Below are positions 1,580 through 57,116 of a DNA stretch of 64,000 nt, piece by piece. The notes below the pieces were generated by a model that was not told where the DNA came from, made no database searches, and saw only the letters and a program-made list of their open reading frames with translations. Both the position numbers and the translations under genes were made by a program. Each line of letters opens with the position of its first letter. Within the stretch, counting starts at the first letter, position 1. Source of the DNA: Sipunculus nudus (taxonomy: Eukaryota > Annelida > Sipuncula > Golfingiida > Sipunculidae); the NCBI GenBank assembly GCA_026874595.1, contig CM049316.1, positions 29,495,339 to 29,559,338 on the forward strand. Reading direction: 5' to 3'.

Positions 1580-1853
1580 ACAAGATTACAAACAGATTGA
1601 ATATCAAGAATCATAGCAGCTAATTAGATGACGGCATGGCTTTTAGTTGGTAACTTATGGCCTTAACCTATGTTGCTCTATAATGAGTATAAAAAACTGA
1701 TGTTGTTATACTTTTAAGCCCTCTAATGCTGTGAATACCTCTAAGAGAGCTGTGGAATCAATTTTAGGAAAATGCTCCAGCTTGAAATATTTTGGACATT
1801 TCAGTGAGAATGTCCATTTGAAAATAATTTACATTAACTTTTCTTTATTATAG

Positions 1854-5225: not shown

Positions 5226-5379
5226 TAATTTTTAGCGAACTTGTGAGGTAATGCGATGGTTTGGCATAGTCTGTCATCAACGTTAACCCATACTATTTCG
5301 AAAACAACTGGAGCTAGTATCATTAAATTTAATGAAAAAAATTAGCCAAATGAAAAACTGCATTTTCTTAGATTTTTTA

Positions 5380-7430
5380 GCTCAGCTGACTGAAAGTCAT
5401 CTGAGCTATAGCGATCACTCTTTGTCCGTCGTCCGTCTGTCCGTCTGTCCGTCCGTTAACCAGGCACAAATCGTAACCGCTGGACCTAGAACCTTGTAAC
5501 TTGGGATTCTGAGAGGTCCATAAAAAATCTCCTTGGAAACCAGAAATTAGGTCTCTGTTACCCATATCCTTCGAGCTATGTGGCCCCAAAGTACCCCCCA
5601 GAAAAGTAAAAAATTTCATACAAAAACTTCAATATCTCATTAACTACTTGACTGATGGTCATGATTTTTGGCATACATATTGATCATGAGATGTTACATC
5701 ACTTCCTGCAGACTGGTGGCGCCACCTGTATTTTTCGATTTTTTACGAATTTTTTTCTCTATTTTTGAGACCTTTAAAAATGTGAACATCTGTTAACAAG
5801 GCACAAATCATAAAGACTGGACTTAGAATCTTAATTCTTGACACACTGAGAGGTCCATGAAAAATCTCCTTGGAAACCAGAAATTAGGTCTCTGTTACCC
5901 ATATCCTTTGAGCTATGGGGCCCCAAAGTACCCCCCAGAATAGTAAAAAATTTCATACAAAAACTTCAATATCTCAATAACTACATCACTGATGGTCTTC
6001 ATTTTTGGCATACATATTGATCATGAGATGTTCGATCAGTTCCTGCAGACTGGTGGCGCCATCTGTACTGTTTGATTTTTTACGATTTTTTTCCTCTATT
6101 TTTGAGACCTTTGAGGATGCTGTCATCTGTTACATGGCACAATTCATAACGACTGGACCTAGAATCTTCATTTTCGACACACTGAGAGACCTATGAAAAG
6201 TCTCCATGGAAACCAGAAATTAGGTCTCTGTTACCCATATCCTTCGAGCTATGGGGCCCAAAATTCCCCCCCAGAATAGTCAAAAATTTCATACAAAAAC
6301 TTCAATATCTCATTAACTACATCACTGATGGTCATGACTTTCGACATACATATTGATCATGAGATGTTTCATCAGTTTGTGCAGACTGGTGGCGCCACCT
6401 GTATTTTTCAATGTTCACGAATTGTTTTCTCCATTTTTGAGACCTTTAAGGATGTAGTTATCTGTCAACAGGGTACAAATCGTAACGACTGGACCTAGAA
6501 TCTTCGTTCTTGACACACAGGGAGACCCATGATAAGTCTCCATGGAAACCTGAAATTTGGTCTCTGTTACCCATATCCTTTGAGCTATGGCACTCCAAAG
6601 TACAGCTCAGAATAATGGAAAATTTGATACAAAAGCTAAAGTATCTGAACAACTAATGCAGAGATAACCATAATTGTTTGCATGGATATTGATCATGGAG
6701 TGTTTCATAAGTTTCTGCAGACTGGTGGCACCACCTGTATTTGTTCGGTTTTTTTTACGAAATTTTTCTGTATTTTTGAGACCTTTAAAGATATGAACAT
6801 CTGTTAACAGGGCACAAATCATAAAAACTGGACCAAGAATCTTCATTCTTGACACACAGGGAGACCCATGAAAAGTCTCCATGGAAACTTGAAATTAGGT
6901 CTCTGTTACCCATATTCTTTAAGTTGTATGGGTCCAAAATACCCCCCCCCCCCCCAGAATAATGGAAAATTTGATACAAAAACTGCAGTATTTCAATAAC
7001 TACAACACTGATGGTCATGATTTTTGGCATACATATTTATCATGAGCTGTTCCATCAGTTTCTGCAGACTGGGTGTGCCACCTCTATTTTTTTTTTCAAA
7101 TTTTTACGAATTTTTTTCTTTTTTTTGAGACCTTTAAAGATGTGGTTATCTGTCAACAGGGTACAAATCGCAACAACTGGACCTAGAATCTTCATTCTTG
7201 TCATGCAAGGAGGCCCATGAAAGGTGCCTGTGGAAACTTGAAATTAAGTCTCTGTTACCCATATCCTTCAAGCTATAGGACTCAGAAGTATCCCTCAGAA
7301 TAATGGACAATTTGATACAAAAACTGAAGTATCTGAACAACTAATGCAGAGATCACCATGATTTTTTGCATGGATATTGACCATTAAGTGTTTTTATTAG
7401 TTTCTTCAGACTGGTGGAGCCACCTGTATT
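5380..7430 (+). repeat. Tandem array, about 336-bp unit, six copies
   Basis: The marker 'gagctatggggcccc' and its variants recur near 5575, 5912, 6248, 6584, 6923 and 7272, giving steps of 336-348 bp. Each unit contains 'caatatctcattaacta', the box CTGGTGGCGCCACCTGT or a variant, 'ctctatttttgagacc' and 'ctagaatcttcattcttgacac'. It is the central array of element A1. The short open frames in it are not conserved as proteins. Confidence 0.85.
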
Positions 7431-7433
7431 TTT

Positions 7434-8618
7434 GTATCCGCCAAAACGAAGTTTTGCGGATACTATGTTTTTGACCGAGTTCCTCCGCCGCCGTGGCGTT
7501 CGTTTCCAGAGAGCTCCTCGGAGACTAATGGACCGATTTTTCCCAAACTTACACCTATTATCGGGTCACATGTGAACTGGTGCCTAACCAATTTGCATTG
7601 ACCTCTGACCTTTCCTCTCTAACCAGTGTCCATTTGTGGGTCTGTTTCCACTCATAAACCCTCATATCTCGGGAACCGTTTGACCGATCAGGAAATAAAA
7701 TTGATACAAATGTAGCCCTTGGATTGCTTTATAACATACACAAAAAATGGTGGCGCCACCTGTAACCATGTTTGCACAGTGTCCATCTGTTCATCTGCCT
7801 TGGGTTAAAATCACTCATATCTCTGCAGTGAATTGACTAATTCACCTGAAATTCGTCATGTGTATACATCCAGGATAGCTTTCTTGATTTTATGACAGGT
7901 GGCGCCACCTACGTTCATGTTCACGCTGATGACATCCAAGCTTATATCTTGGGAACCGTTTGACCGATCAGGAAATAAAATTTATACAAATGTAGCCCTT
8001 TGATAGCTCTGTAACATACACAAAAAATGGTGGCGCCACCTGTAACAATGTTTGCACAGCGTCTGTCTGTTAGTCTGCCGTGGCCTAAAATTACTCATTT
8101 CTCTGTAGTGGATCGACATAACTGCCTAAAATTTTGCAGGTTTATACATCGTGGACAGCTTTCTTGATTTTATGACAGGTGGCGCCACCTACATTCTAGT
8201 TAACGCTGGACGCATCCAAGCTCATATCTCAGGAACCATTTGACCGATTGGGCCAAAATTGTGCATGTGTTTAGATCTCACATAGGTCTTTATCATACAC
8301 AAAACTGGAGGGGTTACCTGGAAAGATTTTTGCACAGTGTTTGTCTGTTTGTCTGCCATGGGCAAAAATTGCTCATATACATGTAGTGGTTTGACTTTTC
8401 TGCCTAAAATTTTGCAGGTGTATACAACTTGGACAGCTTTCTGGATTTGTGGTAGGTGGCACAACCTACATACACATTTAGGCTGCAGACATCCATGCTA
8501 ATATGCAACATACCTCACTCTATTTCCCCTTGCCACTCAATCCATGCCTCACTATCTGATTTTGGCAGATACATGTAGTCACTTGTCGGTTACCCGTATT
8601 CTAGTTTTAAAAGTTTAC
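7434..8618 (+). mobile_element. Family D repeat element nested in the 336-bp array
   Basis: Starts with an inverted hairpin, GTATCCGCC...GCGGATAC (7436-7470), and ends near 'tcggttacccgtattctagtttt'. The inside is a tandem of about 290 bp (two half units) built around TGGTGGCGCCACCTGTAAC and CAGGTGGCGCCACCTAC. The related array of element A2 (34201-34262) runs from 'agccacctgtattttttt' straight to 'agatatattaatacagac'. That marks this segment as an insertion. Inverted or partial copies lie near 15196-16050, 31610-31845 and 45200-45320. Confidence 0.6.
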
Positions 8619-10575
8619 ACATTTTTCTCTATTTTTGAGATATATAAATACAGACTAAATCTTGGCCTGTTGGTTAATCTGTTTGATGCTTCAGTTGAAT
8701 GGGTATATACTACCATTCTGATGATAAAATTTCCTTTTGCGAATCTCTTCCCAGTCAGCTGAGCGTCATGACCCATGGGTCACTTGTTAGAGAAAAAGCT
8801 AAAAAAACTTTTAAAATTTGTCCTCCAAAACAGTCAAGCCAAATTGTTCAGTATTTCACAGAAATAATCTTTTATACCATCTCTCTCAAGTTTGTTCGAA
8901 TGGTTCAAATTCTATGAATTTTGGCTGAGTTACAGGAAGTTAAACTTAGCTAACTGTCCAAAAAATTATATTAATATAATTTCTCAGGAATAGCAGGAGC
9001 TATCCTCCTTAGATTTAATGCAATAATCTGTCACATATCCAGTGTTGTGGTATTCAGCTTATTTATTTGCTATCTGCATTTACTTAGATTTTATAGGGAA
9101 AAAGCTGAAAAACCTTTAAAAGTCTTCTTATTTTACAAAAATGATCCCAGAGGCAAGCCCTCTCAGGTTTGTTCAAATGGTTTGCATTTGATGAATTTTA
9201 GTGGTGTTACACAAATTTGAACAGTCATTTTGCCTATAAAGCATACTGACATAGTAATCTCAGAAATGACAGAAGCTAGCATTACCAAGTATTGTGCAAA
9301 TGTTGGTCACATGACTCATATTTAAAGTTGCAGACTTTGTGGTGCCACCTACATTGACCTGTTTTTTATGGGCAAAAACCTCATAATTTTAGCCTCTTTC
9401 AGCTTAAAATGTTTGTGATGAAACTGTCAAGTTGAATCGTTCAATTTTTCAAAAGAATTATCCTAGGACATGGTTATTTCAATCATATCAGAAAAGCTTA
9501 AGTTGGTCTTATGGCTATTTCAAATTGAAAATTATTTTCAATTATAACTTTTGTAACATTGCACAAAAATTATTCATAGGTGGCCTTTGTTCAAGTTAAC
9601 TTGAATGATTTTTGGCATAATTATTGGACCTTTAACAATGAAAGAAAAAAAGATATTTTGATAACAAGTTTATGAATATGTCAGCTTGAAAAAAAAGCAT
9701 TTTAGCCAAAGCCTTTCAATATGTGTAAACAGATTTATACCAACAGACCAATATTGTGTTTGTATCTTTAAATAGGTTGAGAAACTGCCAACTTTTTCAG
9801 ATTTGGCAACAGATCAAGAGTTCATTCAGTGCAGCCAGATATAGGTCAAGAGTTCAGTCAGTGCAACCAAGCACAAGGCATGTGATCACCTCATTAGTGA
9901 CATGTGAACACCTCATGGCCACCATGTGATCACCTCATGGGTGTCATGCCCCTCAGGGCTGCATGTGGACTACCAACTGTGTCAGATTATGCAACAGGTC
10001 AAGAGTTCACTCAGTGCAGCCAGGTACAGGTCGAAAGTTCACTCAGTCTAGCCAGGTGCAGGTCATGAGTTCTCTTAGTGCAGTAGCCTGAGCCAGCTGG
10101 CAAATTTGTCACAGTTCACTCGGGGGAACTGCCTTTCTCACCTAAGCCTGGTCAGCCCCATGCATCAGACTCAAGGTAAGTTTGATGTATTGGCCTGATG
10201 TTTTGACCTGTCTATGTGTCTTTGATGGCTTTCTCGTTCACTAGACAGGTGTCGCCACCTACAATGGCTTTTGCAAAATGTATGTGCCTGCTTATTTCTA
10301 CAGAGGAATTTGATATATCAGCCTTAAAATGGGCATATATATATATCTCTGATAGCTTCATTGTTTACAAGACTGATGGTGCCAGCTACAATATTTTTGT
10401 GTTGTGTGCACCCATGCCAGAATTTCAGCAGTGATGTTTGTGTAATTTTTTTCTTATTCAAAATGTTTAGTATTTGCATTGTTCATATACATGAGAAGTA
10501 ATGGTCCAGCATTGAAGCATTATACTTGGTGTATTTCCCAATGCACAGGTTCGCACTAGGCCTGTAGGCCTTGTT

Positions 10576-15195: not shown

Positions 15196-16050
15196 CAAAC
15201 TAGAATACGGGTAGTCGACATGTGACTACACAGGGGCGGATCCAGGATTTAGGAAAAGGGGGGGTCCAACCCAGGAGGACTTATGAAAATCCTAAAAAAA
15301 AGGTCATCACGTCTGGAAAAAGGGGGGGTCGAGGCCGCAAAATTACGTCTAAATCCCCTTAAAAAAAGGTTGCTTCGGGTGAAAAAGAGGGGGTCCGGAC
15401 CCCCTGGACCCCCCCCTGGATCCGCTTCTGCTACATGTATCTGCCAAAATTAGAGTGGGACGGGTGAAGTGAGGCATGGATTGAGTGGCAAGGGGAAATA
15501 AAGCGAGGTGTGTTGCATATTAGCATGGATGTCTGCAGCTGAAATGTGTATGTAGGTGGCTCCACCAGCCATAAAATCCTAAAAGTTATCCAAATTGTGT
15601 ACAATTGCAAAATTTTAGGCAGATAAGTCAAACCACTGCCAAGATACGAGTGATTTTATCCCTGGGCAGACAAACAGATGGATGCTGTGCAAAAATGGTT
15701 GCAGGTGGTGCTACCAGTAATGCTTTTGATAAAGAGCTATGTGAGATCTATACACATGCAAATTTTCAGGAGGATACATCAAATCAGTCCTGAGATATAA
15801 GCCTGGATGTCTGCAGCCTGAAAGTAAAAGTAGGTGGCGCGACCTGCCACAAAATCAAGAAAGCTATCCAAGATGTATAAACCTGACAAATTTTACGCAG
15901 ATAAGTCAAACCACTGCTGACATATGAGTGATTTTATCCCACGGCAGACAAACAGACAGACGCTGTGCAAAAATGGCTGCAGGTGGCATCACCATTTTTG
16001 TGTATGATAAAGAGCTATGTGAGATCGATACACATGCAAAATTTTAGGAG
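15196..16050 (-). repeat. Family D-related repeat, inverted copy
   Basis: Read on the minus strand it ends '...cgactacccgtattctagtt', as at 45295 and 8600. It contains AGGTGGCGCGACCTGCC and AGGTGGCATCACCATT boxes spaced as in other D copies. A 200-bp DNA transposon (15231-15430) is inserted close to its end. Confidence 0.6.
15231..15430 (+). mobile_element. 200-bp non-autonomous DNA transposon (hAT-like) with 5-bp target duplication
   Basis: Terminal inverted repeats are CAGGGGCGGATCCAGG at the left and CCTGGATCCGCTTCTG at the right. The direct repeat CTACA flanks it exactly (15226-15230 and 15431-15435). A second copy at 56234-56431 has a different 5-bp flank, GTGGC, so the duplications are real target sites. 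The ends resemble hAT MITEs; a 5-bp duplication occurs in some hAT subgroups. Non-coding. Confidence 0.85.
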
Positions 16051-16342
16051 GAAACGACAAACCTTAGTCACTGACTTGCTGAACACTATTAAATATGTGG
16101 CCAAATATACAGTCACAAACTCCCATGCAGACAAGTAGTGTTAATTTTAAGATACTTGGATATTGTGTAGTAAACTGTATACAAAACACTGGCATTTATA
16201 TGTGGGCATATGTAATAAGTAATCGGCAGTAAACATATGTCTTTGTTTGCAACCAAAATTAACCCTCTTTCCCTCATCCGTAGCGGACTTACCTGTGTAT
16301 TTACTGCTATGAATATCAACAATTTCACTTTATGAACAAATG

Positions 16343-19422: not shown

Positions 19423-22400
19423 CTGGAAGAGAAAAGTATGGCATAAAATAATTAATCATCACACAATATCATTTAATTTATTCTGCCAAAGAGCTTACAT
19501 TTTCAACAAAGTATGTTTGTTTATTAGCAGTTCAGCATAAAAACTACTGAGCCAATTTGTTGTTGTGTTTGACATGAACCAGAGAAGACCCCAGCAAATA
19601 TTTTTCCTGTGCAGGGCTTGGATGGTTGAGTGGTAAAACACTTTGCTCTCTCCTCTGCTTATCCAGGTGTGATTCTAGCAGTGCTATGAGAATGGGCTGT
19701 AGTACAGTGGCCCATTCAAGGACAGTGGGTTTCTAAGGGTCCTCCTGTTTCCTCCACGCCTACACACAACTGAGTGCCACCATCCAAGACATGGAGAGCG
19801 CCTCATATTAACTGAGCGACTCTGTAGAGCAGAGACCATGCTTCAGCAAGCCCTGGAACATGAAATATCAACAGGAAAATTGAACCAATCAATTGGCTCA
19901 CATACTGCCCATCTACATGATGGTGAAAGACTATTTTACGCTATTTTAATCATCCAATGATGGTAGACATTATTGAGAATCTGACCAATGGCAATCATCT
20001 TGTAGACCTGGTGAGTTTCAGGTGCCTGTGTTCTTGTTGCTTAGGCATGGGAACAGTTTTGATTTTGTTTACAGTTTACTTTTGTAACAATGGATTATAA
20101 TGGCCATTATGATTTCATTAACATTTGTTCATAATTCATGATACTGCATACCAGGAGGCATGATGAATCAAGGTCTCTGCTGGACAGAGTCAGAGATCTA
20201 GCTCCCTGGATGATCCTTGTGGCACCGGCATGTGGGTCTAAGTACAGCATAAATATACACATTCAGAAATATTGGTAATGCAGGGGAGGGAGCTGTTTCC
20301 CATTTTATAGTCAATCACCAGTTCCAGGAATGACTGATTAATATTCGGTGAGTTATTAATTACGGTCCATTAAAAACATAACATTAATTGCCTAACTGGT
20401 AAATTTTTGGCATTTTAATATAGTACTATATTTTGCTATTTAAATCTCACCTAAAAACTCTGCATACTATCATGGTAATTCTCAGGTTAACTGCTCAGAT
20501 TTTTCAGGGGAATGTCAAAACATTTCTTTGACTGGGGTGATTTGATTTTATTTGGGTGGCCATTATTTTTTTTACGCCTTATGATAAAATTGATGGTTGC
20601 TTTTAGTAACTGAGCACAAGAAATTGGAAAAGTAGCGACCAACTTGTGACAAAACTCAATAATCACTATGTCATTAGTAAAGCTAATTATACATTAATAT
20701 AAATTTGCATATACAATTGATGAACCGATTAAAGTTGTAGATGTAATATTTTGGACAGTCGTGAGGTTTAAAACTTTGCTCTCTCCACTGACAACTAGGT
20801 TCGATCCCCAGCACTGCAAATGAGATTGGGTTTGTAGATGCCTGTTCAAGGTTGGTGGTGTTCTCCGGGTTCCTCCATCCTCATACATCTGAATGTCACC
20901 ATCCAGGCCATGGAGAGTGGCTCGTATTAGTAATTATAACCAGCTTTACAATACATGTTAAATAAATAAAGTTTATAATTACAAGAAGCACACTTACTTG
21001 TAACAGTGCCCCCTGTTAGGGGAGAGACAAAGCCCATGACCAGGATGAAGACTGGTATGAAACGTGCCAGCTTGTGTCTCCTGAGGCGGCCAAACGCAAT
21101 GGCCGCTGCAACCACATGAACCAGCACTGAGGAGAAGAGGGCCCACAGGAATACCCACAGCCACATGTCTGTAATACAAAAGCCATATTTGTTATACAAG
21201 CCACACCTGTAATATACAGATGTAATTATAGCAACATGGCTGTAATGCACAAGGAGAGAAGAGGACAATTTACATGAATACCCAGAGCAATATCTCTGTA
21301 ATACAAAAGCCACATCATGTAATAAAAGCCACATGTGTAATATATGGGTGTACTGTAGTTATAAAAACATGGACAAAATGTACAAGCACAGACGAAAACA
21401 AGGCCTACAGGAACACCTAAAGCAAAGTCTCTGTAATCAATGGCATCAATATGGGGGGGGGGGGGGGATGTAAAGGTCAATGTAAGCACCCCCTCCCCAA
21501 TATTCAAAGAATAATATTCATATGTTGGAAATGAAATATATTTATAATTAGAATTAAAGACTTTGGTTCCATTTCTGAGTTTACTATGAATTATTATATA
21601 TCAAGACCTGGTTTAGAATTAACATATACTGGTAACATATTACCTTATTTTTAAGGGAAGGTCAATGTAAGCACCCCCTCCCCAATATTCAGAATATAAT
21701 ATTCATATATTGGAAATGAAATATATTAATTATTAGAATTAAAGACTTTGGTTCCATTTCTGAGTTTACTATGAAATATTATATATCAAGACCTGGTTTA
21801 GAATTAACATATACTGGTGACATATTACCTTATTTTTTCCTTATTTGTAATTGTAATGTATTTGATATGTGTCACAGAGATAATAATAGGTGTGGGGTTA
21901 TAAAAAATTTGTCCCAACTTTGATAACCCTCCCACACCTGTGAGTCATCCTGTCCACCCATAAAGATAAATTGACACCACTGTCTGTAATACAGAAACTG
22001 TATAGGTTTCAGAAACCACATGAGTACAGGTACTATGAATGGAGATCACAATCATTTACAATGTGACTGGCAGGGTGCAGGGATCCCGTTTTATAATCAT
22101 TCAGTTTAGCTCAGTCTTAACATCGGCCATAATGAGATTTCCAAGGCTCTGCACCAATAACCATGAGAAATTCTATGACTTTTCCAGGACTTTTAATAAC
22201 CTAACCAACAATTTTCAAGGGCTTAAGTTACATAACAAGTGAGCCATGGGACATGACGCTCAGCTGACTGACATGTTGACAATATGTCCTTGCAAAGGCA
22301 ACTAATTGAGATAACGCAGGTGGTATCACAGTTCATGCAAATAACCTCAAGTTCATTAAGACCCATAACCAGACCAAATTTGATGACAATCCATTCAGCT

Positions 22401-25400
22401 GTTCCTGAGGAATCTGGCAATTTGTGTGTATGTTGCATTATTTCTCGGGCTCTCAAACATGGCCTGTCACAGTGACCTAATATCAGGTTTCTGAGGAGAA
22501 CTTTTGAGGAACTCTCAGGATGTCAAGTAAGAAGATTCAAGGTACAGTGGTTATGATTTGTGTCCTGTTACCAGACAATCACATCTTTAAATGATTAAAA
22601 AATAGAGAAAAAAATGCTTATAAATTAAAAAAGGCCAGATGGCGCCAACTGTCTGCAGAAACTGATGAAACACTCCATGATGAATATGCATGCACAGAAT
22701 CATGGTAATAAATACCAGGGTTGGGGCCAGGTACTTGTACCTGTACCTGGGTACACATTTCAGAGTACCTGTACCTGTACCTGCCAGTCATGAGTAGGAA
22801 GTACCTTGTACCTGTACCTGTACCTGGAACTAAAGTACCTGTACCTGGTACAAGGTACTCCAGGTACATTTTCATATTTTCATTTTTTTAGTTTTTTTTT
22901 CTCTTTTAGTATTAAATTTGGTTACCTGTAGTGTAAAATAATCAGCAAGCCATCAGTGTGATAAACTGCTCATGAATTGAATTGTTATCACACCTCCAGA
23001 ATGGTCACATGTGTGAAATCAGCTGTAACCACTTATTAAGCAAATCATTTGATTATACTATACTTGGTGCACTTAATGAACATTTAGTACACAAATATCC
23101 TGTTTGTGAAGTATGGTTTCAGAATAAACCCTGTCTTACTGTACTTGGTGTACTTAAAGGACTTTCAGTAGACTTAAATTTCATGTTTGTGAATGTATGG
23201 CATCATACGCTACTTGGTGCACTTAATGGACTTTTAATACACTTACATATTTTTTTTGTGAACGTATGGTGCCATACAGTTAATAAGTTCTAAAAAAAAT
23301 ATACTTTAGTAAATGACTTCGGTAGTGTTTGATAGAAAAAAGGCATGTTAACTTGCATATACTTAAATATATGCCGTAAAAGTGTCTTTGAAGTGATCCT
23401 TAAATAAATGTACCTGTACCTGTACCTAGGTACTTTCTAAAGTACCTGTACCTGTACCTAGGTACTCTGTGAAAATCAAGTACCTGTACCTGTACCTGGC
23501 CAATTCACAAGTACCTGTACCTGTACCTAGGTACTTTCACTTGTACCTTCCCCCAACCCTGATAAACACATCAGTTGTTCAGCTATCTGAGCTTTTGTAT
23601 CAAATTTTTAATTATTGTATGGGGGGTTCTCTTGAGCCCAATAGCTCCGAGGATATGGGTTACAGAGACCTAATTTTATGTTTCCTTGGAGAAATTTCAT
23701 AGACCTCCGAGGATGGCAAGATAGAAGATTCTAGGTCAAGTGATTATGATTTGTGCCCTGTTAACAGACGACCACATCTTTAAAGGTCTCAAAAATAGAA
23801 AAAAAATGTGTAAAAATTACAAAAAACTAGATGTGTCGGAACAACACAAATGCCCCCGCCTGGGGCAAATTAAAAAAATTTGTTAAATTTTGTAAAATTT
23901 TTTAAGTTCAGGAGGTGTTGTATGGTCAAAAGTAGGTCAACAAGGGCAAAATGCAAACTCGATCTGTAAAGGGTCATTATCAAGCAACACACCAAAAATC
24001 AGGCCAGTATCTGCAGGCATTGTGAAAAAAAGTCCATATATGTGCATTTTTCATGAAAATTTCTGTCTTTCATGAAATTTTCTATGTTCAGGATCTGTCA
24101 TATGGTGAAAAATAGGTTAACTGGGACGAAACGCGAACTCGATCTGTAAGTGGTCATTATGCCCCCACAGACCAAACATTAGGCCAGTATCTGTAAGCAT
24201 TGCATTGCGAATCTAGAATATTAGCAAAAGTTGATAATCATTTATAAATTTAAATTGAAGAGGTATATACCATGTTTCATAACCATCCACCAAATGTTTC
24301 CTGAGAAATAAGCTCCTAAATACTAAGCTCTGTGACCTTGAAAAGTAGATCAAGATCACCCATCTTTGAACTTGACCAAGATTTTGTAAATATAATGCAA
24401 TAGCACTGAAGAAATGAAGTTCCTGTGTTGAATACCTTTGGAGATATCCTGCACAAAAGGCCAAAATTGAAAAAATCCGATAAAATTTCATTAAAAAATC
24501 AGAAATTGCAGGTGGCGCCACCAAAATTGTGCAGCACATACAGACCATCAGTCCCAATGATTATAATAAGTTTTGTGAAAATCCACACAATGGTTCCTGA
24601 GATATCAATTTAACTTCTGAGTGTTTTTCTATAATCAGCTCTAAAATGTAGAAAAATGGGTCAAGGTCACCCATCTTCGAACTTGACCGAGATTTTATCG
24701 ATATACATCTTCACTGATGAAATAAAATTCCAACGGTGAATCCTTTTAGAGATATCCCGCTCACAAGGTAAAAGTTAACAGACGCGGAACTGACAGACAC
24801 CCGACAGACAGATGGACGGACAGACAGACAGACAGCTTGGGTGACGACAATAGCCCATCAGCCTATGAGCTGAGGGCAAAAAACGGCTGTACATGTGTAT
24901 TTGTCATGAAAATTTCTATTTTTCATGAATTTTTCTAAGTTTAGGAGCCGTAAAACAGTCAAAAGTAGGTCAACCGGGACGAAACGCGAACTCGATCTGT
25001 AACTGGTCATTATCTGCCCACACACAAAAAATCAGGCCAATATCTGCATGCAGGCATTGCGAAAAAAAGTCCGTACATGTGTATTTGTCATGAAAATTTC
25101 TATTTTTCATGAAATTTTCTAAGTTTAGGAGCCGTAAAATGGTCAAAAGTAGGTCAACCGAGACGAAGCGCGAACTCGATCTGTAACTGGTCATTATCTG
25201 CCCACACACCATAAATCAGGCCAATATCTGCAGGCATTGCGAAAAAAAGTCCGTACAACTGTTTGATTTCGGAATGTCGGAAGGACGGAAGGACAGACAT
25301 GGGTAAAACTATATGCCCAAGCCACTTTGTGGCGGGGGCATAAAAATCCAGGTGGCACCACCTGTCTGCAGAAACTGATGAAACACTCCATAATCTATAT

Positions 25401-26716
25401 GTATACAAAAAATCATGGTGATCAATGCATTAGCTGTTCAGATACTGGAGCTTTTGTATCAAATTTTTAATTATTATTGGGGTACTTCTGAGCCCCATAG
25501 CTCGGAGGATATGGGTAACAGGGACCTAATTTCAGGTTTCCAAGGAGATTTTTCATGGACCTACCTGGATGTCAAGTTAGAAGTATCTAGGTCCAGTGGT
25601 TATGATTTGTGCCCTGTTAACGGACAGACAGATGGACAGACAGACGGAGACAAACAAAGAGTGATCGCTATTGCTCAGATGACTCTCAGTCAGCTGAGCT
25701 AAAAACTTTGTTCCAGACTATAAGATGAAAAGACTAATTCTATTTAATTTACATTCTGGCACTGTGAATATACAAAGAGCAAAACGATCATACTGCAGTC
25801 AAATATTTACACTGGGCATCAAATGAATTATACAAGGCATGTAAGACCAGTTAAGCATACCTGAAATTTGCAGATTTATTCACCCTCAACGTCAAAATTG
25901 AATACTGAACCCAAATTTCCACGACTTTCAAGGCCTTAAATTTTATGTTTTATGACTATCCAGGTTTTCAAGGACCAGCAGAAACCAAGGATTTCTTGAT
26001 CTTAAATAAGTGATGAACAGCAATACAGCAGCTTAAGAGACACATGAATTGAAATCCTTGATATTCCTTTTTATTCAGTAAGTTTTAATAATGTTTCTGA
26101 TATTAATATGTTATTTCCAAATTTCCATGACTTTCAAGGCCTTAAATTTTATGTTTTATGACTATCCAGGTTTTCAAGGACCAGCAGAAACCAAGGATAT
26201 TCCTTTTTATTCAGTAAGTTTTAATAATGTTTCTGATATTAATATGTTATCTGTTCACAGGGAAACATCATTTGTTATCGCCCAACTGTGAATAAAACTT
26301 TTCTATCAAATTTTGCTGATTCTCTTTTACTAACAAAATTGAAAAAAAAAATATTGATAACAAATCCCCAAAAACTGGGTGAATAATAAATATGAAAATG
26401 AATCCAATTAGCCAGCCCTTAAGACTAATGTAGCATGTCTGAGGGAATGAATCCAAGTTTTTCAAAGACCCTCAGTTCTGTAAATCATTCATTCTTTATT
26501 CTAAACATCATGTTTATTCACTTAAAATTAATATACTGGCAACACTGTCCCTTTTCCTCCGAAAAACATTTCACCAAGCCAAATCAGCAGGCAACTTTAG
26601 ATTTACAAACTACACTTTGAAGAAGTTGTCTCACCTTTAAATTCCTTGAGTGGACCTCGACCAGAAAATAGAAGCACATTATCACCAGATTCAGAGGTCT
26701 CGTAATTGACAGTCAT
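19292..26716 (-). CDS. TMEM170: TMEM170 family membrane protein, three coding exons
   Basis: Exons 26716-26635, 21168-20998 and 19422-19292 join with GT-AG introns and consistent phase into a 127-residue protein, close to the family's usual 130-145. After an acidic N terminus (1-28), a hydrophobic segment starts MWLWVFLWALFSSVLVHVV (29-47), the family signature. Next come the basic loop GRLRRHKLARF and a second hydrophobic segment (PVFILVMGFVSPLTG). The stretch TSAAIAGVYWASG and the C terminus ending SFTRILATL are diagnostic. Vertebrate TMEM170A is an ER/nuclear-envelope membrane protein linked to ER sheet shape; that role is transferred by homology. The C-terminal GVGQT recalls TMEM170B, so A versus B is not settled. 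Introns are large (5.5 and 1.6 kb). The long one hosts a Helentron-like element, a hAT-like element and other repeats. Confidence 0.93.
19611..19862 (+). repeat. tRNA-derived SINE-like sequence
   Basis: The head resembles a tRNA: an A-box-like TGGTTGAGTGGT and a B-box-like GGTGTGATTCTAGC about 45 bp later. The body 'gttcaaggacagtgggt...cctcctgtttcctccac' and 'gagtgccaccatccaag...catggagag' recurs near 20790-20935. It lies in TMEM170 intron 2. Confidence 0.6.
20740..20935 (+). repeat. Second SINE-like copy
   Basis: A B-box-like AGGTTCGATCCCC at about 20799-20811 is followed by 'gcctgttcaaggttggtggt', 'ctccgggttcctccatcc' and 'atgtcaccatccaggccatggagag', parallel to the 19611 copy. The A box is eroded. 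Confidence 0.6.
20998..21168 (-). CDS. TMEM170: TMEM170 coding exon 2
   Basis: The acceptor is TGTATTACAG, ending at 21169. The first bases AC complete a GAC codon from exon 1. The exon encodes MWLWVFLWALFSSVLVHVVA onward through the second hydrophobic segment to ...LTGGTVT plus one base. The donor GTAAGT starts at 20997. Length 171 bp. Confidence 0.96.
21450..21845 (+). repeat. Direct tandem pair of a dispersed repeat (about 185 bp each)
   Basis: Copies at 21473-21658 and 21659-21836 both read 'ggtcaatgtaagcacccc', 'tggaaatgaaatata', 'gactttggttccatttctg' and 'caagacctggtttagaatt'. A diverged single copy lies at 12107-12380. A poly-G run precedes the first copy. Confidence 0.85.
22716..23561 (+). 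mobile_element. 846-bp hAT-like element with 8-bp target duplication
   Basis: The ends CAGGGTTGGGG and CCCCAACCCTG are perfect inverted repeats. The flanks ATAAATAC (22708-22715) and ATAAACAC (23562-23569) match at 7 of 8 bases, as expected for hAT target duplications. Both ends carry arrays of GTACCT/AGGTAC (for example CTGTACCTGTACCTAGGTAC). The centre (23040-23275) has about three units built on 'tacttggtgcacttaatg' and 'tttgtgaa...gtatgg'. It interrupts a 336-bp array unit. No transposase frame is present. Confidence 0.85.
23829..25345 (-). mobile_element. Family C repeat element nested in A3
   Basis: The left edge 'gtgtcggaacaacacaaatg' precedes an inverted hairpin TGCCCCCGCCTGGGGCA. 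The right edge has 'ccactttgtggcgggggcata'. Inside is a tandem array of about 180 bp, roughly five units, each with 'gtcaaaagtaggtcaac', 'cgaactcgatctgtaa' and 'aggccagtatctgc'. A region at 24240-24800 carries an exact GGTGGCGCCACC box. A stretch of GACGGACAGAC repeats lies at 24810-24833. Flanking sequence on both sides belongs to the family A array. Confidence 0.6.
25914..26252 (+). repeat. Local direct duplication, second copy lacking a middle part
   Basis: The block 'ctttcaaggccttaaatttt...aggaccagcagaaaccaagga' occurs at about 25922-25995 and 26131-26198. The block 'tattcctttttattcagtaa...gatattaatatgttat' occurs at about 26060-26113 and 26199-26250. In the second copy the two blocks abut directly. 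In the first they are separated by about 65 bp. Confidence 0.85.
26635..26716 (-). CDS. TMEM170: TMEM170 coding exon 1 (initiator)
   Basis: ATG at 26716-26714, followed by TVNYETSESGDNVLLFSGRG and PLKEFK plus one base. The donor GTGAGA starts at 26634. An in-frame TGA lies upstream in the same exon (26752-26750) with no other in-frame ATG after it, which fixes the start. A separate ATG (about 26745) opens an 8-codon upstream frame ending in TGA. The exon's own acceptor (poly-T then CAG) ends at 26761, so at least one 5' non-coding exon lies further upstream. Confidence 0.93.
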
Positions 26717-27401: not shown

Positions 27402-30400
27402 AACAAGTGGCCCATGGGCAATGACCCGCAGCTAATTTTGATTGGGTGCTCATGTTTTTTTATTAATGTTATATACTGTCTGTGAGAAGTGCCTATGGCT
27501 AAGGTTACAATGTCATGTTAGAAGAGTCTAGGGCTATTGGATACAATTTGTGCCTCGTCTTTCTGGGTTGCCAAATCCATTTTTCAGCCCATAGGTCACA
27601 CAATATAGGTCACCATGACCTAATTTCAGGTTTCCACAATCAATTGACTAGGACCTTCCTGGATTTTATGTTAAAAGATTCTAGGCCTTATGGATACAAT
27701 TTGAGCCCTGTCTGACTGTCAGGGTGCTTATATGACATCTTTTCTGATAGGTTGCAAAATATAGGTCATGGTGACCTAATTTCAGTTTTCCAAGGACAAT
27801 GACCAAGGGCATCTCAGAATGTTATATTAGAAGATTCTAGGCCTAACAGATACAATGTGTGCCATGACTGACTGTCTGGGTGTCTATGTGACTTCTTTTC
27901 CTAAAAGGTCACAAAATATAGGTCATGGTGACCTAAATTCAGTTTTCCAAAGACATTTGCCACGGACGTGTCAGAATGTTACATTAGAAGATTTTAGGCT
28001 TAACAAATACAATATGTGCCCTGCCTGACTTTCTGGGTGCTCAAAATCCTGTTTTCGGCCTGTAGGTCACAAAATATAGGTCACCATGACCAAATTTCAG
28101 GTTTCCTAGATTTGCCTAGGACCTCCCATGATGTTGCATTAGAATATTCTAACTGTATGATTTGTGCCGATCTAACATTCAGGAGTCTCAAAATCAGGTT
28201 TTTGTCTTGTAGGTAAAACAAGGGACCTATGGGTCACTGTGCTCAGCTGAAGTTGACCTTGAAGGTAAAAATATAAAATAATATCAAATGGAGATCAAGT
28301 GTAAGAGGAAGAGGTAATAAAGGCCATGGTTGGTTTATATGATTGGTTTGTATTGATTAGCAAGAAATTGTTGCAAATAATATTTTGTGACCTGACCATG
28401 TGTTTCCTAATGTTGAAACTGAAGCATGTGAGCAGTTTGTGAACAAATGATCTGTACTATTACCATGATTAACTATTGACATTTCAGTAGTTTACAAATT
28501 TGTTTAATTGAATCTATTTTTTGGTATAATATATATTATTAATTATATACGTATTTTTTTATGAAATGTATACAGATGAAATATAACTAATTAACAACAT
28601 AAAACAGGGCAAACAAAGCCTGTTCTCAAATTCTGCTGTGGCAGGAAAATTATGAACCAATGTTTGTATTAAATCCTAATTTTTTTATCACATCAATTTT
28701 TTTTTTAATTAAGTTTATATTTCTATACATTTCCAATAAAACAGATACATCTGAATATAAAAGTTGATTCATAATTCTCAACTGCATCATCATAAATCTC
28801 AATCTTGTCATATAACACCACACCATGCATACAAATGTTTATTTATTTTTTACCACAAAAATATATCTTTTAAATCTGCAAAACAATAAATATCTAAAAA
28901 TACTTGATTTAGATTTCACAATTTTGCGGGGTTTGCAGGGGGGGGGGGGGGGGATTGGGGTGGTGATATTAGAATAACTGTACACCTGTCACAGCAGGGG
29001 GTCTCCCCCAGTGACTGTAACAAATCAGAAACCTTGGCAAAGCCCGACTTCCAGTGACCTGGAGTTGGACCCTGCATCTGTAATCTGTTATCAAAGCAAA
29101 TGACTACAGTAGAGCCTCAAGAAAATAAATCAATAACTAGCTTAATTTTCAAGCTTTTATTTTCAAATTTCAGATTTAAACAAATTAAATATTTATGTTT
29201 ACATGCTGTGAACATTAAATCAATGGTACATACAGGAGAAAAATGTGCCATGGTCAAAGTTGGGCTAAATTTAAGGTACTGATTTTATTTTAATGCTAAT
29301 AACTTAAAAAATTTACAAAATTCAGATCTAATTTTGGGTAAACAATTGAAATCTTAATTAAACATAGTTATATACTTGGGAAAATAGACTCTAATTTCAA
29401 AATTATTCATGTTAAGTGAGTAAATATTTTTCGTGATTTTTTACAAAGTCTATTATGTTTAGGCCCATAACTTAAAGAATTTATACTTAACAGACTTAAT
29501 TCCTGGCATGTACATAGGAACTATATAGAAGAATATTTATGGTAAATATGAGGAAAAACAGATGAGTGGTTTTGATATTAGGCAGTCCTGAAGAGTGAAA
29601 ATAGGTTTTTAATAAAAATTTGAGGTTTTTCCTTAATTTCTCAAAGGAACGAAGTCGCAAAGACCCAGTTTTCGGCTTGGTAGGGGATCTTGGGGACATC
29701 TAACATTATGCTGAATTTTGGATTCCTAAGTCTTACGGTTTCAAAACGTGCCACATCTACGGACCGACGGACAGACGGACGGACGACGGACAATGGACCA
29801 CGACTATAGCTCAGATGACTTATAGTCAGCTGAGCTAAAAATGTAGGTCACCATGACCAAATTTCAGATTTCTAAGGAGATTTGATGTAGCATTAGAAGA
29901 TTCTAGGCCTGACAGATTTTGTCACCATCTGACATTCAGGGTGTTCATAAAACATCTTTTTCCTATAAGTCACAGAACACAGGTCACAGTTTCCTAATTT
30001 CAGGTTTCTAAGGACATTTGCCTAGGACCTCCCTTAATATCATGTTGGAAGATTCTAGGCCTAATGGATACTATTTGTGCCCAATCTGACTGTCTGGGTG
30101 CTCACAATCATGTTTTCTGCCTGTAGGTCACAAAATATAGGTCACCATGACCTAATTTCAGGTTTCCATGGAGATTTGCCTAGAAACCCCCAGGATATTG
30201 AGTGAGAAGATTCTAGGCCTCACATATATGATTTCTCCCCATCTGACATTCAGGGTGCTCAAAATCATGTTTTCCACCTGTGGGTTACAAAATATAGGTC
30301 ACCATGACCTGATTTCAGGTTTCCAAGGAGATTTGCATAGGACCTTCCTAAATGTCACGTTGGAGGATTCTAGGCCCTATCGATTCAATTTGTGCCCAGT

Positions 30401-30978
30401 CTGACTGTCTGATGCTAAAAAAACCTTGTTTTCTGCCTGAAGGTCATAAATTATGGGTCACCATAACCAAATTTCAGGTTTCCAAGGAGGTTTGCCAAGA
30501 AATTCCAGGGATATTGTGTTAGAAGATTCTAGGCCTCACAGATATGATCTGTCCCAATCTGACATTCAGGATGCTCATATGACATCTTTTTCCCTATAGG
30601 TGGCAGAATATAGGTCACAGTGACCTAGTTCCAGTTTTCCAAGGACAATTGCCTAGGATATCCCAAAATGTCAGGTTAGAGGTTTCTAGGCCTAATGGAT
30701 ACAATTTGTGCCCCGCCTGACTGTCGGTGTGCTCGAAATCATGTTTCCGGCACGTCGGTCACAAAATATGTCACCATGACCTAATTTCGGGTTTCCAAGG
30801 AGATTTTTTATCCAGGACCTCCCTGAATGTACAGTTAGAAGTTTCTAGGTCTAATGGTTACGATTTGTGCCTTGATAATGGACAGACTGCTGGACAGCTG
30901 GACCGCCTGACAACCAGATGGACGCCTGACAAAGGGTGATCACTAGAGCTCAGATGACTTACAGTCAGCTGAGCTAAA
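27402..30978 (-). mobile_element. Family A element (copy A4) with a 157-bp array
   Basis: On the minus strand the 5' end TTTTAGCTCAGCTGACTGTA is near 30978-30959, followed by TTGTCAGGCG/GTCCAGC-type repeats. The 3' end is at 27402-27432 and is degenerate (GGGTCA...CTTGTT). The centre is a tandem of about 157 bp: 'ggtcaccatgacctaatttcagg' recurs near 27609, 27766, 27921 and 28079, then near 29850 and about six more times to 30790. The array is split by element A5. Non-coding. Confidence 0.6.
28213..29845 (-). mobile_element. Family A element (copy A5) nested in A4
   Basis: The minus-strand 5' end TTTTAGCTCAGCTGACTATA (29845-29826) and GTCCGTCCGTCTG tract are clear. The 3' end at 28213-28250 reads TTCAGCTGAGC, then ACAGTGACCC and CCTTGTTTT. 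Outside both ends the 157-bp array text ('cttgtaggt' / 'tgtaggtcaccatg') can be joined, which shows insertion into the array. Its body (29280-29750) is a different sequence, shared in inverted form with 48119-50195. Confidence 0.65.
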
Positions 30979-32168: not shown

Positions 32169-34402
32169 ATTAGCTCAGCTGACTTTCAGTCATGTTGAGC
32201 TATAGCGATCACTCTTTGTCCGTCGTCCATCTGTCTGTCTGTCTGTTCATTAACCAGGCACAAATCGTAACCGCTGGACCTAGAATCTTGTAACTTGACA
32301 TTCTGAGAAGTCCATAAAAAATCTCCTTGAAAACCAGAAATTAGGTCTCTGTTACCCATATCCTTTGAGCTATGGGGCCCCAAAGTACCCAGCCAGAATA
32401 GTGAATACAAAAAGCCAGAATACAAAAACTTCAATATCTCATTAACTACATCACTGATTGTCATGATTTTTGTCATACTTATTGATCATGAGATGTTCCA
32501 TCAATTCCTGCAGACTGGTGGCACCACCTGTATTTTTCGATTTTTTACGATTTTTTTCTCTATTTTTGAGACTTTTAAAAATGTGGACATCTGTTAAAAG
32601 GGCACAAATTGTAAAGACTGGACCTAGAATCTTCATTCTTGACATTCTGAGAGACCTATGAAAAGTCTCCATGGAAACCAGAAATTAGGTCTCTGTTACC
32701 CATATCCTTTGAGCTATGGGGCCCCAAAGTACCCCCCGGAATAGTGCAAAATTTCATACAAATACTTCAATATCTCATTAACTACATCACTGATGGTCAT
32801 GATTTTTGGCATAAATATCGAGCATGAGATGTTTCATCAGTTTCTGCAGACTGGTGGTGCCACCTGTATTTTTCGATTTTTTACGAACTGTTTTCTCTAT
32901 TTTTGAGACCTTTAAAAATGTGGACACCTGTTAACAGGGCACAAATCGTAAAGACTGGACCTAGAATCTTCATTCTTGACATTCCAAGAGGCCTATGAAA
33001 AACCTCCAAGGAAATCAGAAATTAGGTCTCTGATACCCATATCCTTCGAGCTATGGGGCCCAAAAGTACCCCCCCAGAATAGTCAAAAATTTCATAAAAA
33101 AACTTCAATATCTGATTAACTACATCACTGATGGTCATGATTTTTGCATACATATTGATCATGAAATGTTTCATCAGTTTCTGGAGACTGGTGGCACCAC
33201 CTGTATTTTTCAAATTTTTACAATTTTTTTTTTCTCTATTTTTGAGACCTTTAAGGATGTAGTAATCTGTCAACAGGATTCAAATTGTAATGACTGGACC
33301 TAGAATCTTCATGCTTGACACACAGGGACACCCATGAAAAGACTCCATGGTAACCTGGAATTAGGTCTCTGCTACCCATATTCTTTGAGATATGGTACTC
33401 CAAAGTAAAGCTCAGAATAATGGAAAATTTGATACAAAAGCTGAAATTATCTGAACAACTAATGCAGAGATCACCGTAATTGTTTGCATATATATTAATC
33501 ATGGAGTGTTTCATCAGTTTCTGCAGCCTGGGTGCACCACCTCTATTTTTTTCGATTTTTTACGAATTTTTGTCTCTATTTTTGAGACTTTTAAAAATGT
33601 GGACACCTGTTAACAGGGCACAAATCGTAAAGACTGGACCTAGAATCTTCATTCTTGACATTCCAAGAGGCCTATGAAAAACCTCCAAGGAAATCAGAAA
33701 TTAGGTCTCTGATACCCATATCCTTCGAGCTATGGGGCCCCAAAGTACCCCCCAGAATAGTGAAAAATTTCATACAAAAACTTCAATATCTCAATAACTA
33801 CATCACTGATGGTCATGATTTTTGGCATACATATTGATCCTGAGATGTTTCATCAGTTTCTGCAGATTCGTGGCGCCATCTGTATTTTTCGATTTTTTAC
33901 TAATTTTTTTCTCTATTTTTGAGACATTTAAAGATATGAACTTCTCTTAACAGGGCAGAAATCATAACAACTGGACCTAGAATCTTCATTCTATACACAC
34001 AGGGAGACCCATAAAAAAATCACCATGGAAACCTGAAATTAGGTCTCTGTTACCCATATCCTCCAAGCTATAGGACTCCAAAGTATCCCTCAGAATAATG
34101 GAAAATTTGATACAAAAGCTGAAGTATCTGAACAACTAATCCAGAGACCATCATGCTTCTTTGCATGGATATTGACCATTAAGTGTTTTTATTAGTTTCT
34201 GCAGATTGTGGAGCCACCTGTATTTTTTTTTAATTTTCTTCTCAATTTTTTAGATATATTAATACAGACACAATCTCAGCCTGTTTGTTAATCTGTTTGG
34301 TGCTTCAGTTGAATGGTTATATACTACCATTCAGATGATAAAATTTCCTTTGGCAAATCTCTTCCCAGTCAGCTGAGCGTCATGACCCATGGGTCAATTG
34401 TT
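32169..34402 (+). mobile_element. Family A element (copy A2)
   Basis: The 5' end ATTAGCTCAGCTGACTTT is at 32169, followed by 'gagctatagcgatcactctttg' and (GTCTGTCT)n. The 3' end at 34368-34402 is CAGTCAGCTGAGCG, the palindrome TGACCCATGGGTCA and ATTGTT. The centre is the 336-bp array in six copies (markers near 32369, 32713, 33050, 33389, 33729 and 34067). It is the sister of A1 but lacks the family D insertion. It sits in a 130-bp tandem unit whose halves flank it. Confidence 0.7.
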
Positions 34403-35139: not shown

Positions 35140-36105
35140 TGTTTTTCGTATCTCATTTGATACCACCGTACAGATTGCCTTGATTTTCAACCTACACATG
35201 CTCAGGGTTTGTCCCAAGATGTTCCATCCACCTTATTTTGCAATATTTGCATAACAAAGGCTAGGTCAAGTCCGAACATGGATGACCTTGACACATTTAT
35301 AAGGTCATAGCGGCAAAAATGCTGATATGATGTTAATGCAAATAACTAGAAAAAAATTTGAGATACAGTCACCAAACTTGCAGCATTGACAAACCTTATC
35401 AAGAGCTATTGCAGCATTTTTAAAGGTCACAGTGGCAAAAATGCTAAAACGATGTTAACACAAAGAATTTGTGGTACAGTCACCAAACTTGCAGCATTGA
35501 TGAACCTTATAAAAGGCTAGATGAAGTTCGAACATAGATGATCTTGACGCATATTCCAAGGTCACAGTGGTGACAATGCTGAAATGATGTTAACACAATA
35601 ACTCAAAAAGAATTTGAGGCACAGTCACCAAGCTTGCAGCATTGATGGATCTTATCAAGGGCTAGATCAAGTTCGAACATGGATGACCTTTATGTATTTT
35701 TCAAGGTCACAGCGGTGATAATCCTAAAATGATGTGAATGCAACAACTTTAAAAGAATTTCAGGTACAGTCACCAAACCAGCAGAATTGATGCATTTTTT
35801 CAAGGGCCAGTCACGTCCAAAGATGGATGACTTTGAAGCATTTTTCAAGATCACAGCAGCGATAATGCTAAAATGATGTTAATGCAATAACTCCAAAAGA
35901 ATTTGAGGCCAGTCACTAAACTTGCTGCATTGATGCACTTTATCAAGGGCTAGTTATAGTTTTAACATGAATGACCTTCACACATTTTTCAAGGTCACAG
36001 GATAATGCTAAAATGATGTTAACGCAATAACTCGAAAAGAATTCCTGGTAAAGTCACCAAACTAGCAGGATTAATGAACCTTATCAAATTACGAAGACAA
36101 ATTGC
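35140..36105 (+). repeat. Tandem array, about 130-150-bp unit, roughly seven copies
   Basis: The units share 'cacagtcaccaaacttgcagcattgatg', 'tttatcaagggctag', 'gttcgaacatggatgacctt' and 'aaggtcacagcggtgataatgctaaaatgatgtta'. One further unit lies at 63725-63840. Non-coding. Confidence 0.8.
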
Positions 36106-41779: not shown

Positions 41780-41816
<37 letters not shown>

Positions 41817-45700: not shown

Positions 45701-45768
<68 letters not shown>

Positions 45769-56980: not shown

Positions 56981-57116
56981 TTCTGGCGTTCGCCATGATG
57001 GACGTGTGATCCCGCTCTGCGAGATTCGTCCACTGTTGGGTTTGTACTAATGAGTTTGCCAACTGAACTGTAAGTTGTCTTCTTTCCCTTGCCCGCCATG
57101 TTGAACCCCACTTATT

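What the first reader, a model, noticed from the sequence alone, without database searches (positions are those of the whole stretch)
5374..8788. Family A: a modular Helentron-like family whose members keep the ends and swap the central array
At least six copies (5374-8788, 22234-25704 inverted, 27402-30978 inverted, 28213-29845 inverted, 32169-34402, 48119-50195) share a 5' end with GCTCAGCTGACT followed by GTCCGTC repeats. Their 3' end has the inverse AGTCAGCTGAGC, a 14-bp palindrome TGACCCATGGGTCA and CTTGTT. The centres differ: a 336-bp array, a 157-bp array, or the 'attaaaaatctattttcac' repeat. Subterminal inverted repeats, simple-repeat tract, central tandem array and 3' hairpin are the hallmarks of Helentron-associated (HINE/DINE-1/pearl) elements. 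Swapping of whole array modules between common ends is the part I would follow up.
Basis: partly seen in the sequence, partly recalled or inferred. Interest (0 to 1): 0.75.

Follow-up and report, generated by a model that had tools for sequence, protein, structure and literature searches.

The report
Rolling-circle transposons stacked inside each other
These are abundant non-coding jumping elements that look like a known rolling-circle type, and in the clearest case the extra centre came from another such element that jumped in and was then copied along, rather than from a swap of centres.

Summary
Six copies with such ends are present, one nested in another. A 30-base 3' end occurs at 12,337 places in the 1.43 Gb genome; the reversed control finds none.

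The family (A) has non-autonomous Helentron (HINE/pearl-like) architecture: 5' subterminal repeat plus hairpin, GTCY tract, satellite-like array, 3' subterminal repeat, palindrome, CTTGTT, T-rich target, no target duplication seen. No autonomous partner was found, so membership rests on structure.

The "array swap" is mostly something else. The 336-, 166- and 157-bp arrays share one block. 5'-end variants predict content: 10 of 12 GAA-loop elements carry the second (280-bp) array, 0 of 10 others do.

That second array is a different HINE (B, with its own hairpin ends) inserted in a T-run of the last 336-bp monomer. Empty sites show no duplication, and the A|B junction recurs at 2,226 places. 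A third family (C) sits at the corresponding T-run in 22234-25701, and one fetched stretch holds C and B one monomer apart. So HINE arrays can act as landing pads, and a composite has spread as a unit.

Two-array HINEs and related flanks with unrelated arrays are known in oyster; the resolved nesting is the added value.

The parts
5378..8788 (+). A1: family-A HINE, composite form (336-bp array plus nested family B with 280-bp array)
   Evidence: 98.8% identical to the L049 copy
5379..5407 (+). A1 5' subterminal repeat plus inverted repeat (hairpin AGCTCAGCTGACT-GAA-AGTCATCTGAGCT)
   Evidence: DNA fold -9.6 kcal/mol, z -3.6
5423..5453 (+). GTCY microsatellite-like tract
5455..7433 (+). 336-bp array of A1, 5.8 copies
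7434..8604 (+). Family B HINE nested in the T-run of the last 336-bp monomer; begins GTATCCGCCAAAAC..., ends ...TATTCTAG
   Evidence: A|B junction at 2,226 places genome-wide
7434..7463 (+). Family B 5' hairpin (subterminal repeat plus inverted repeat)
   Evidence: DNA fold -10 kcal/mol, z -6.5
7664..8504 (+). 280-bp array carried by B, 3 copies
8558..8572 (+). Family B 3' subterminal repeat GATTTTGGCAGATAC (imperfect inverse of the B 5' repeat)
8753..8788 (+). A1 3' end: AGTCAGCTGAGC, palindrome TGACCCATGGGTCA (8769-8782), CTTGTT
32171..34402 (+). A2: family-A HINE, 336-bp array only, no B; 5' loop TTC
22234..25701 (-). A4: family-A HINE with pieces of 336-type monomers interrupted by nested family C and an hAT-like element
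23827..25341 (-). Family C HINE nested in the corresponding T-run of a 336-type monomer; begins ATGCCCCCGCCAC, ends CACATCTAG; carries 184-bp repeats
27402..30976 (-). A5: family-A HINE (5' loop GTA) with 157-bp array, split by A6
28217..29837 (-). A6: gamma-type HINE (5' loop ATA) nested in the A5 array; joined flanks align to the 157-bp monomer with no duplication
48124..50195 (+). A3: diverged gamma-like HINE, no tandem array; old internal duplications
15431..16063 (-). 280-bp-array relative of family B outside any recognised family-A element, no B 5' end recognised
43973..45311 (+). 280-bp-array relative of family B with B-like 3' end, no B 5' end recognised

Best explanation
Family A is a very abundant set of non-autonomous Helentron-type (HINE) elements. 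They are probably moved in trans by a rolling-circle Rep/helicase that recognises the 5' hairpin end and stops at the 3' repeat plus palindrome, inserting in T-runs without duplicating the target. Only the ends are constrained, so the cargo varies by lineage. Two processes make the cargo differ. (1) A repeat of about 160 bp diverged and was re-amplified into 157-, 166- and 336-bp units (shared block shown; order inferred). (2) T-runs inside the arrays are insertion sites for other HINEs. Family B, with its own ends and 280-bp array, landed in a T-run of the last 336-bp monomer of one A lineage, and that composite then multiplied as one unit; its left junction is at 2,226 places. Family C landed in the corresponding T-run of other monomers. 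SHOWN: anatomy, shared junctions, empty sites, copy numbers. INFERRED: rolling-circle mechanism, trans-acting enzyme, direction of monomer evolution.
For: Ends. T-rich target (T at -1/-2/-3/-4 in 29/26/28/29 of 31 pairs) and no TSD. Uninterrupted relatives of the joined flanks for 12 of 31 pairs in the sample (which removes one false case from the 13); 5 of 31 align across the junction to a HINE monomer; A6 in A5. B bounded by its own hairpin and CTAG ends. Empty site CCACCTGTA-T8/9-AAGTTT or AAAGTTT in three elements without B (L039_7800, L050_895, L035_895). B-type ends in another context (L046:4379-5523) and at a different position of a 336-type monomer (L035). Same B site in 14 of 19 sampled A 3' regions, with the left junction in 12 copies. 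A|B junction at 2,226 places, control 0; 15 of 21 exact junctions on the first 27 Mb of C1 have an exact A 3' end 1,294-1,334 bp downstream on the same strand (0.23 expected). A|C junction at 39 places with at most 1 mismatch (13 exact), control 0. L055: C 3' end, one 336-bp monomer, then the A|B junction. Shared block of 336/166/157 monomers. 5'-loop class against B presence, 10 of 12 against 0 of 10.
Against: No autonomous element with family-A ends was found; only 1 of 143 Helitron_like_N places was inspected and it lacked the ends. Gamma elements share about 30 bp of 5' end and the 3' motif with alpha elements but have unrelated centres, which nested insertion does not explain. Same-strand 5' ends also lie downstream of 13 of 25 3' ends, so end co-occurrence is weakly specific. 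The sample is biased: 20 loci on one contig chosen by an exact alpha 3' end; 5 of those 20 anchors had no 5' partner within about 9 kb. Shared junctions are not independent events, so the Fisher P of 1e-4 overstates. The 3' hairpins do not fold much better than shuffles (z -0.3 to -1.4). The L046 B copy lies beside other 280-bp-array sequence, and the other B relatives with arrays in the window lack a recognised 5' end. Two of 14 composites (L037, L044) lack the left junction. The genome-wide count of the empty site did not complete.
Confidence: 0.83

Rival explanations
1. Array modules are swapped between common ends by recombination or template switching during rolling-circle replication.
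For: Alpha and gamma elements share terminal motifs with unrelated centres; the oyster paper reports related flanks with unrelated repeats (PMC7492417).
Against: 336/166/157-bp arrays share a block; the 5' loop predicts content; the one clear module gain has insertion-type empty sites and its own ends.
Confidence: 0.15
2. The 280-bp array is captured satellite (filler) DNA, not a transposon insertion.
For: 280-bp arrays also occur without recognised A ends and without a recognised B 5' end (15431-16063, 43973-45311); capture of host DNA by Helitrons is discussed in PMC7492417 and PMC12628747.
Against: The block starts with a 30-nt hairpin and ends in its inverse repeat plus CTAG, splits a T-run without loss or gain, and similar ends bound a B copy elsewhere.
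Confidence: 0.08
3. Composite copies spread by segmental or tandem duplication rather than by transposition.
For: Copies share identical internal junctions; some elements abut head to tail (30976/30979; L035 2385/2388).
Against: Printed flanks differ between copies and are T-rich at the 5' side; the 100 listed exact junctions are scattered over C1 and part of C2; 12 of 31 elements have uninterrupted relatives of their flanks in the sample.
Confidence: 0.04
4. Cut-and-paste MITE or foldback element.
For: Inverted subterminal repeats.
Against: Repeats are subterminal and asymmetric, 3' palindrome present, no target duplication.
Confidence: 0.02

Closest known systems
Cg_HINE elements of Crassostrea gigas (PMC7492417; parts 1-4 of 7 read)
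   Same: LF (subTIR, complementary IR, microsatellite, often GTCY) - satellite-like array (mostly 140-180 bp) - RF (subTIR, palindrome); TT insertion, no TSD; two-array elements; related flanks with unrelated arrays; autonomous partner not identified.
   Different: Here the second array belongs to a second HINE nested at a resolved T-run with empty sites and a junction at 2,226 places; a 336-bp unit with a non-homologous second half. The paper leaves the origin of double arrays open (recombination, junction fragment, or multiple insertions).
Pearl elements (CvA, CvE, CvG), MgE and DTC84 of bivalves (as described in PMC7492417, PMC5139131 and PMC11136912; original papers not read)
   Same: Same modular plan; central repeats about 160 bp.
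   Different: Sequence relation was not tested: no pearl or BIV160 sequence was held.
DINE-1 and HINE-Mo elements with Helentron partners (PMC4067079; passages read)
   Same: Subterminal repeats that are themselves palindromic (HINE-Mo), IR a few bases from the 5' subTIR (DINE-1), 3' palindrome, T-rich target.
   Different: There autonomous partners were found, with more than 95% identity in the Culex passage; here none was found.

Membership tests
Helentron non-autonomous element (HINE) | 12-15 bp subterminal inverted repeats at both ends | tested here: met
   AGCTCAGCTGACT and AGTCAGCTGAGC, the 3' one exact in 3 of 6 window copies
Helentron non-autonomous element (HINE) | Inverted repeat close to the 5' subTIR (DINE-1 type) | tested here: met
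   Hairpin with 3-nt loop
Helentron non-autonomous element (HINE) | Short palindrome near the 3' end | tested here: met
   TGACCCATGGGTCA and variants. Fold energy alone is not above shuffles
Helentron non-autonomous element (HINE) | Insertion in T-rich/TT sites without target duplication | tested here: met
   the exact cut within a T-run cannot be placed
Helentron non-autonomous element (HINE) | Microsatellite and/or central tandem repeats (present in some copies) | tested here: met
   Most alpha/beta elements have arrays; one search lists none of period 25+ for the 9 gamma elements, some of which show a GTCC tract
Helentron non-autonomous element (HINE) | Autonomous Rep/helicase(/endonuclease) partner sharing the ends | tested here: inconclusive
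   143 Helitron_like_N matches in the genome; 1 inspected, no family-A ends in the stretches held
Canonical Helitron | 5' TC, 3' CTRR, insertion between A and T (PMC4067079 passage) | tested here: not met
   Family A: AGCTCAG... and CTTGTT in T-runs. Families B and C do end in CTAG, which fits CTRR, but start GTATCC/ATGCCC and split T-runs
Pearl family | Sequence relation to CvA/CvE/CvG or BIV160 repeats in a mollusc | not testable with these tools
   No reference sequences held; genome unnamed; protein look-ups did not name the host
Cut-and-paste MITE | Target site duplication | tested here: not met
   1 of 31 pairs with a 5+ bp match, shuffles 0.87

The most novel reading that the evidence does not exclude
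Satellite-like arrays inside HINEs act as built-in landing pads (T-runs repeated once per monomer) for other HINE families, so rolling-circle elements evolve by stacking: A gains B, A+B gains C, and each composite can still be copied by the outer ends, carrying several complete, possibly still mobile, elements and their arrays in one hop. This would be a general route by which new satellite arrays enter and spread through a genome.
Probability: 0.45. Interest if true: 0.6.

Novelty: new variant of a known kind. Interest (0 to 1): 0.45.

Why it matters
How HINEs acquire and exchange their satellite-like arrays is left open in the oyster paper I read (recombination, junction fragments or multiple insertions; PMC7492417). 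Here one acquisition is resolved to a T-run, with empty site, donor family and later multiplication, and a second family uses the corresponding T-run. That makes 'nested insertion, then co-amplification' a concrete, countable mechanism that can be tested in any genome with such elements, and links transposon target preference to the origin of dispersed satellite DNA.

Tried and rejected
Whole-genome DNA search with the 101-bp 5' end returned no candidates, because the tool skips very common words; uninformative. Rfam: nothing at gathering score. Autonomous partner: Helitron_like_N gave 143 matches, a lower bound. That 336 bp is a dimer of homologous halves was rejected (self-half score 17, shuffle maximum 23). 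Naming the host by protein look-ups failed: the retroelement ORF's named hits are a coelacanth, a turtle and an oyster, the 584-aa ORF at 1838 has none, and the C8 ORF's best named hit is Antedon mediterranea. A paper looked up by DOI was not held. The genome-wide counts of the empty site, of B ends and of the CCACCTCT-C junction did not complete.

Rows dropped: the 30 loci L001-L030 (3 kb each) were not used in the element analysis. Of 78 5'-profile hits, 38 under 30 bits were dropped; they are the hairpin matching itself on the other strand where I looked. pairing required matching 5' and 3' classes; 9 5' ends and 20 3' ends stayed unpaired. One search repeats the association without that constraint: alpha/beta 3' ends had an alpha/beta 5' end nearest in 17, gamma in 6, none in 10; gamma 3' ends had gamma in 9, alpha/beta in 1, none in 3. 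The end profiles were built from the sequences they were used on. One search counted 13 empty sites; one search shows that one (L035_895) is a match to its own 3' end, leaving 12. At 3 mismatches many of the 99 A|C matches have left flanks unlike the A monomer, so I count the 39 with at most 1 mismatch; whether those lie in A arrays was checked only for the window copy and L055.
Full report
WHAT IS THERE. The window is a 64-kb piece (C11:29495339-29559338) of an unnamed assembly of 1.43 Gb in 153 contigs. Their boundaries, from the T before AGCTCAG to the last T of CTTGTT or its variant, are 5378-8788, 22234-25701 (-), 27402-30976 (-), 28217-29837 (-), 32171-34402 and 48124-50195. The exact 12-mer occurs nine times on the two strands, against 0.003 expected. 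Further unpaired 3' ends lie at 30979 (-), 34716 (-), 36501 (-), 51223 (+) and 52255 (+). Genome-wide, the A-type 30-mer 3' end has 12,337 matches at up to two mismatches and the 28217-type has 5,489; the reversed control has none.

SAMPLE. I fetched 20 loci of 9.9 kb (L031-L050), 20 of the first 100 listed exact matches, all on contig C1, and analysed them with the window. End profiles gave 40 5' ends (78 hits, 38 under 30 bits dropped) and 51 3' ends; class-aware pairing gave 31 complete elements, leaving 9 and 20 ends unpaired. Choosing loci by an exact 3' end favours the alpha lineage. Five of the 20 anchor 3' ends had no 5' partner within reach.

HOW IT MOVES. For 46 3' ends with at least 4 kb of upstream sequence, a same-strand 5' end lies within 4.5 kb in 33 and an opposite-strand one in 8. 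A same-strand 5' end lies downstream for 13 of 25, so this test is only weakly specific. The four bases before the 5' boundary are T in 29, 28, 26 and 29 of 31 elements (positions -4 to -1). Matches of five or more bases between flanks occur in 1 of 31 pairs, shuffled mean 0.87. Joined flanks find an uninterrupted relative elsewhere in the sample for 12 of 31 (correcting the 13), the first listed at 80-99% identity with 1-14 gap positions, and 5 of 31 align across the junction to a HINE monomer. For 28217-29837, nested in the 157-bp array of 27402-30976, the joined flanks restore a monomer without gain or loss at the junction in the best alignment. The 5' end folds as a strong DNA hairpin (z -3.6); the 3' palindrome does not fold better than shuffles on energy alone. 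These are the structural features listed for HINE and DINE-1 elements (PMC4067079, passages) and for Cg_HINE elements (PMC7492417). The rolling-circle mechanism itself is inferred from that resemblance.

ARE ARRAYS SWAPPED? Three results speak against free swapping. First, the arrays are related. The first half of the 336-bp monomer is homologous to the 166-bp monomer of L050_4888 (score 213, shuffle maximum 26) and shares a block with the 157-bp monomer of 27402-30976 (56 against 25). The two halves of the 336-bp unit are not homologous to each other (17 against 23), so it is not a simple dimer. Second, end variants predict contents. Of 22 alpha/beta elements, 10 of 12 with the GAA 5' loop contain the 280-bp module and 0 of 10 others do; copies related by descent are not independent, so this shows linkage, not many events. 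Third, gamma elements (5' loop ATA) have their own cores, with no array by the settings; looser settings show short weak repeats and there are old internal duplications. Their similar ends with unrelated centres remain the one pattern that swapping, or deep divergence with constrained ends, must explain.

THE SECOND ARRAY IS ANOTHER ELEMENT. In 5378-8788 the 280-bp array lies in a block, 7434-8604, that starts with a 30-nt hairpin, GTATCCGCCAAAACGAAGTTTTGCGGATAC (z -6.5), and ends with the imperfect inverse repeat GATTTTGGCAGATAC and CTAG. It sits inside the last 336-bp monomer: CCACCTGTATTTTT, then B, then TTTTAAAAGTTTACAC. Three elements without B (L039_7800, L050_895, L035_895) read CCACCTGTA, eight or nine T, then AAGTTT or AAAGTTT at the same place. 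The T-run is split with no duplication beyond the ambiguity of T-run length. The same B site is present in 14 of 19 sampled A 3' regions and absent from 5; the left junction is seen in 12 copies and is missing in L037 and L044. A B copy with similar ends lies at L046:4379-5523, beside other 280-bp-array sequence, and another is inserted at a different position of a 336-type monomer in L035. The A|B junction occurs at 2,226 places, control 0. Of 21 exact junctions on the first 27 Mb of C1, 15 have an exact A 3' end 1,294-1,334 bp downstream on the same strand, 0.23 expected by chance. The composite has therefore multiplied as a unit.

THE SAME LANDING SITE AGAIN. In 22234-25701 a third family, C (window 23827-25341; hairpin ATGCCCCCGCCAC-AAA-GTGGCTTGGGCAT, z -3.9; end ...GGCGGGGGCAT...CACATCTAG), is inserted at the corresponding T-run of a 336-type monomer. 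The A|C junction pattern has 39 matches at no more than one mismatch, 13 of them exact, and 99 at up to three; many of the last have left flanks unlike the A monomer, that is, C in other T-runs. The variety of left flanks suggests repeated insertion rather than one large expansion. Two C1 loci have a C junction 1,645 and 1,646 bp upstream of an A|B junction, and a third 1,480 bp (positions). The 441 bases fetched at the first (L055) read: C 3' end, T-run, one 336-bp monomer, then the A|B junction; from the T-run on they are 98.4% identical to 5378-8788. So C and B lie one monomer apart in one A array there; its outer ends were not fetched. Gamma elements are also nested in 336-type monomers of L044 and L035, in the T-rich part near this site, and in a 280-bp monomer of L034.

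WHAT MOVES IT. Helitron_like_N has 143 matches in this genome. The one long ORF I inspected (C8, 2,250 aa; DUF6570 and OTU domains in the part held) has no family-A ends in 80135500-80139100 or 80143250-80148300. The autonomous partner is unknown, as the oyster paper also reports for its elements.

COMPARISON WITH WHAT IS KNOWN. The oyster study describes the same architecture, two-array elements, and related flanks with unrelated arrays, and discusses recombination, junction fragments and multiple insertions as origins (PMC7492417, parts 1-4 of 7). A 2025 review says that in C. [quoted passage not shown] In the passages read, and in the listings of searches, I did not see a HINE family whose copies carry a second HINE with its own ends at a fixed, resolved site; the source cited by that review was not held. 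The family itself is therefore, by structure, of a known kind; the composite is a variant of it.

Noticed in passing
window 56833-62099: Retroelement with 148-bp, 100% identical inverted terminal repeats and overlapping ORFs; the ORF at 59248-60816 is related to proteins with PF00078 and PF17917 domains. Looks like a DIRS-type element (recalled label); identical arms suggest it is young.
   Followed up: partly
window 22716-23561 (-): Element with CAGGGTTGGGG inverted termini and near-identical 8-bp flanks (GTGTTTAT/GTATTTAT), hAT-like (recalled label), nested in the 22234-25701 element.
   Followed up: no
window 24877 (-): 5' end of what looks like a fourth HINE-like family (GCCCTCAGC...GCTGATGGGC hairpin plus GTCY tract) inside family C.
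   Followed up: no
window 30976/30979; L035:2385/2388: Two family-A elements start directly at the terminal T-run of another element's 3' end, forming head-to-tail neighbours.
   Followed up: no
336-bp and 280-bp monomers: Both contain the 12-bp palindrome GGTGGCGCCACC although otherwise barely similar (scores 29-34, shuffle maxima 25-27).
   Followed up: no
window 41393-41810 and 45738-46432: Inverted repeats of 157 and 215 bp, 97% complementary, around about 4-5 kb that includes TA-rich tracts and a 280-bp-array element.
   Followed up: no
window 1838-3592: Open frame of 584 aa with no match at E 0.001 in the protein collection.
   Followed up: partly
L054 and L052 (C8:80143250-80145300): Downstream of the OTU/Helitron-type ORF an AT-rich array of about 310-bp units runs for about 2 kb, seen by eye.
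   Followed up: no
window 35462-36087, 63727-63812: 145-bp tandem array with a related single unit about 27 kb away, not attributed to any element.
   Followed up: no
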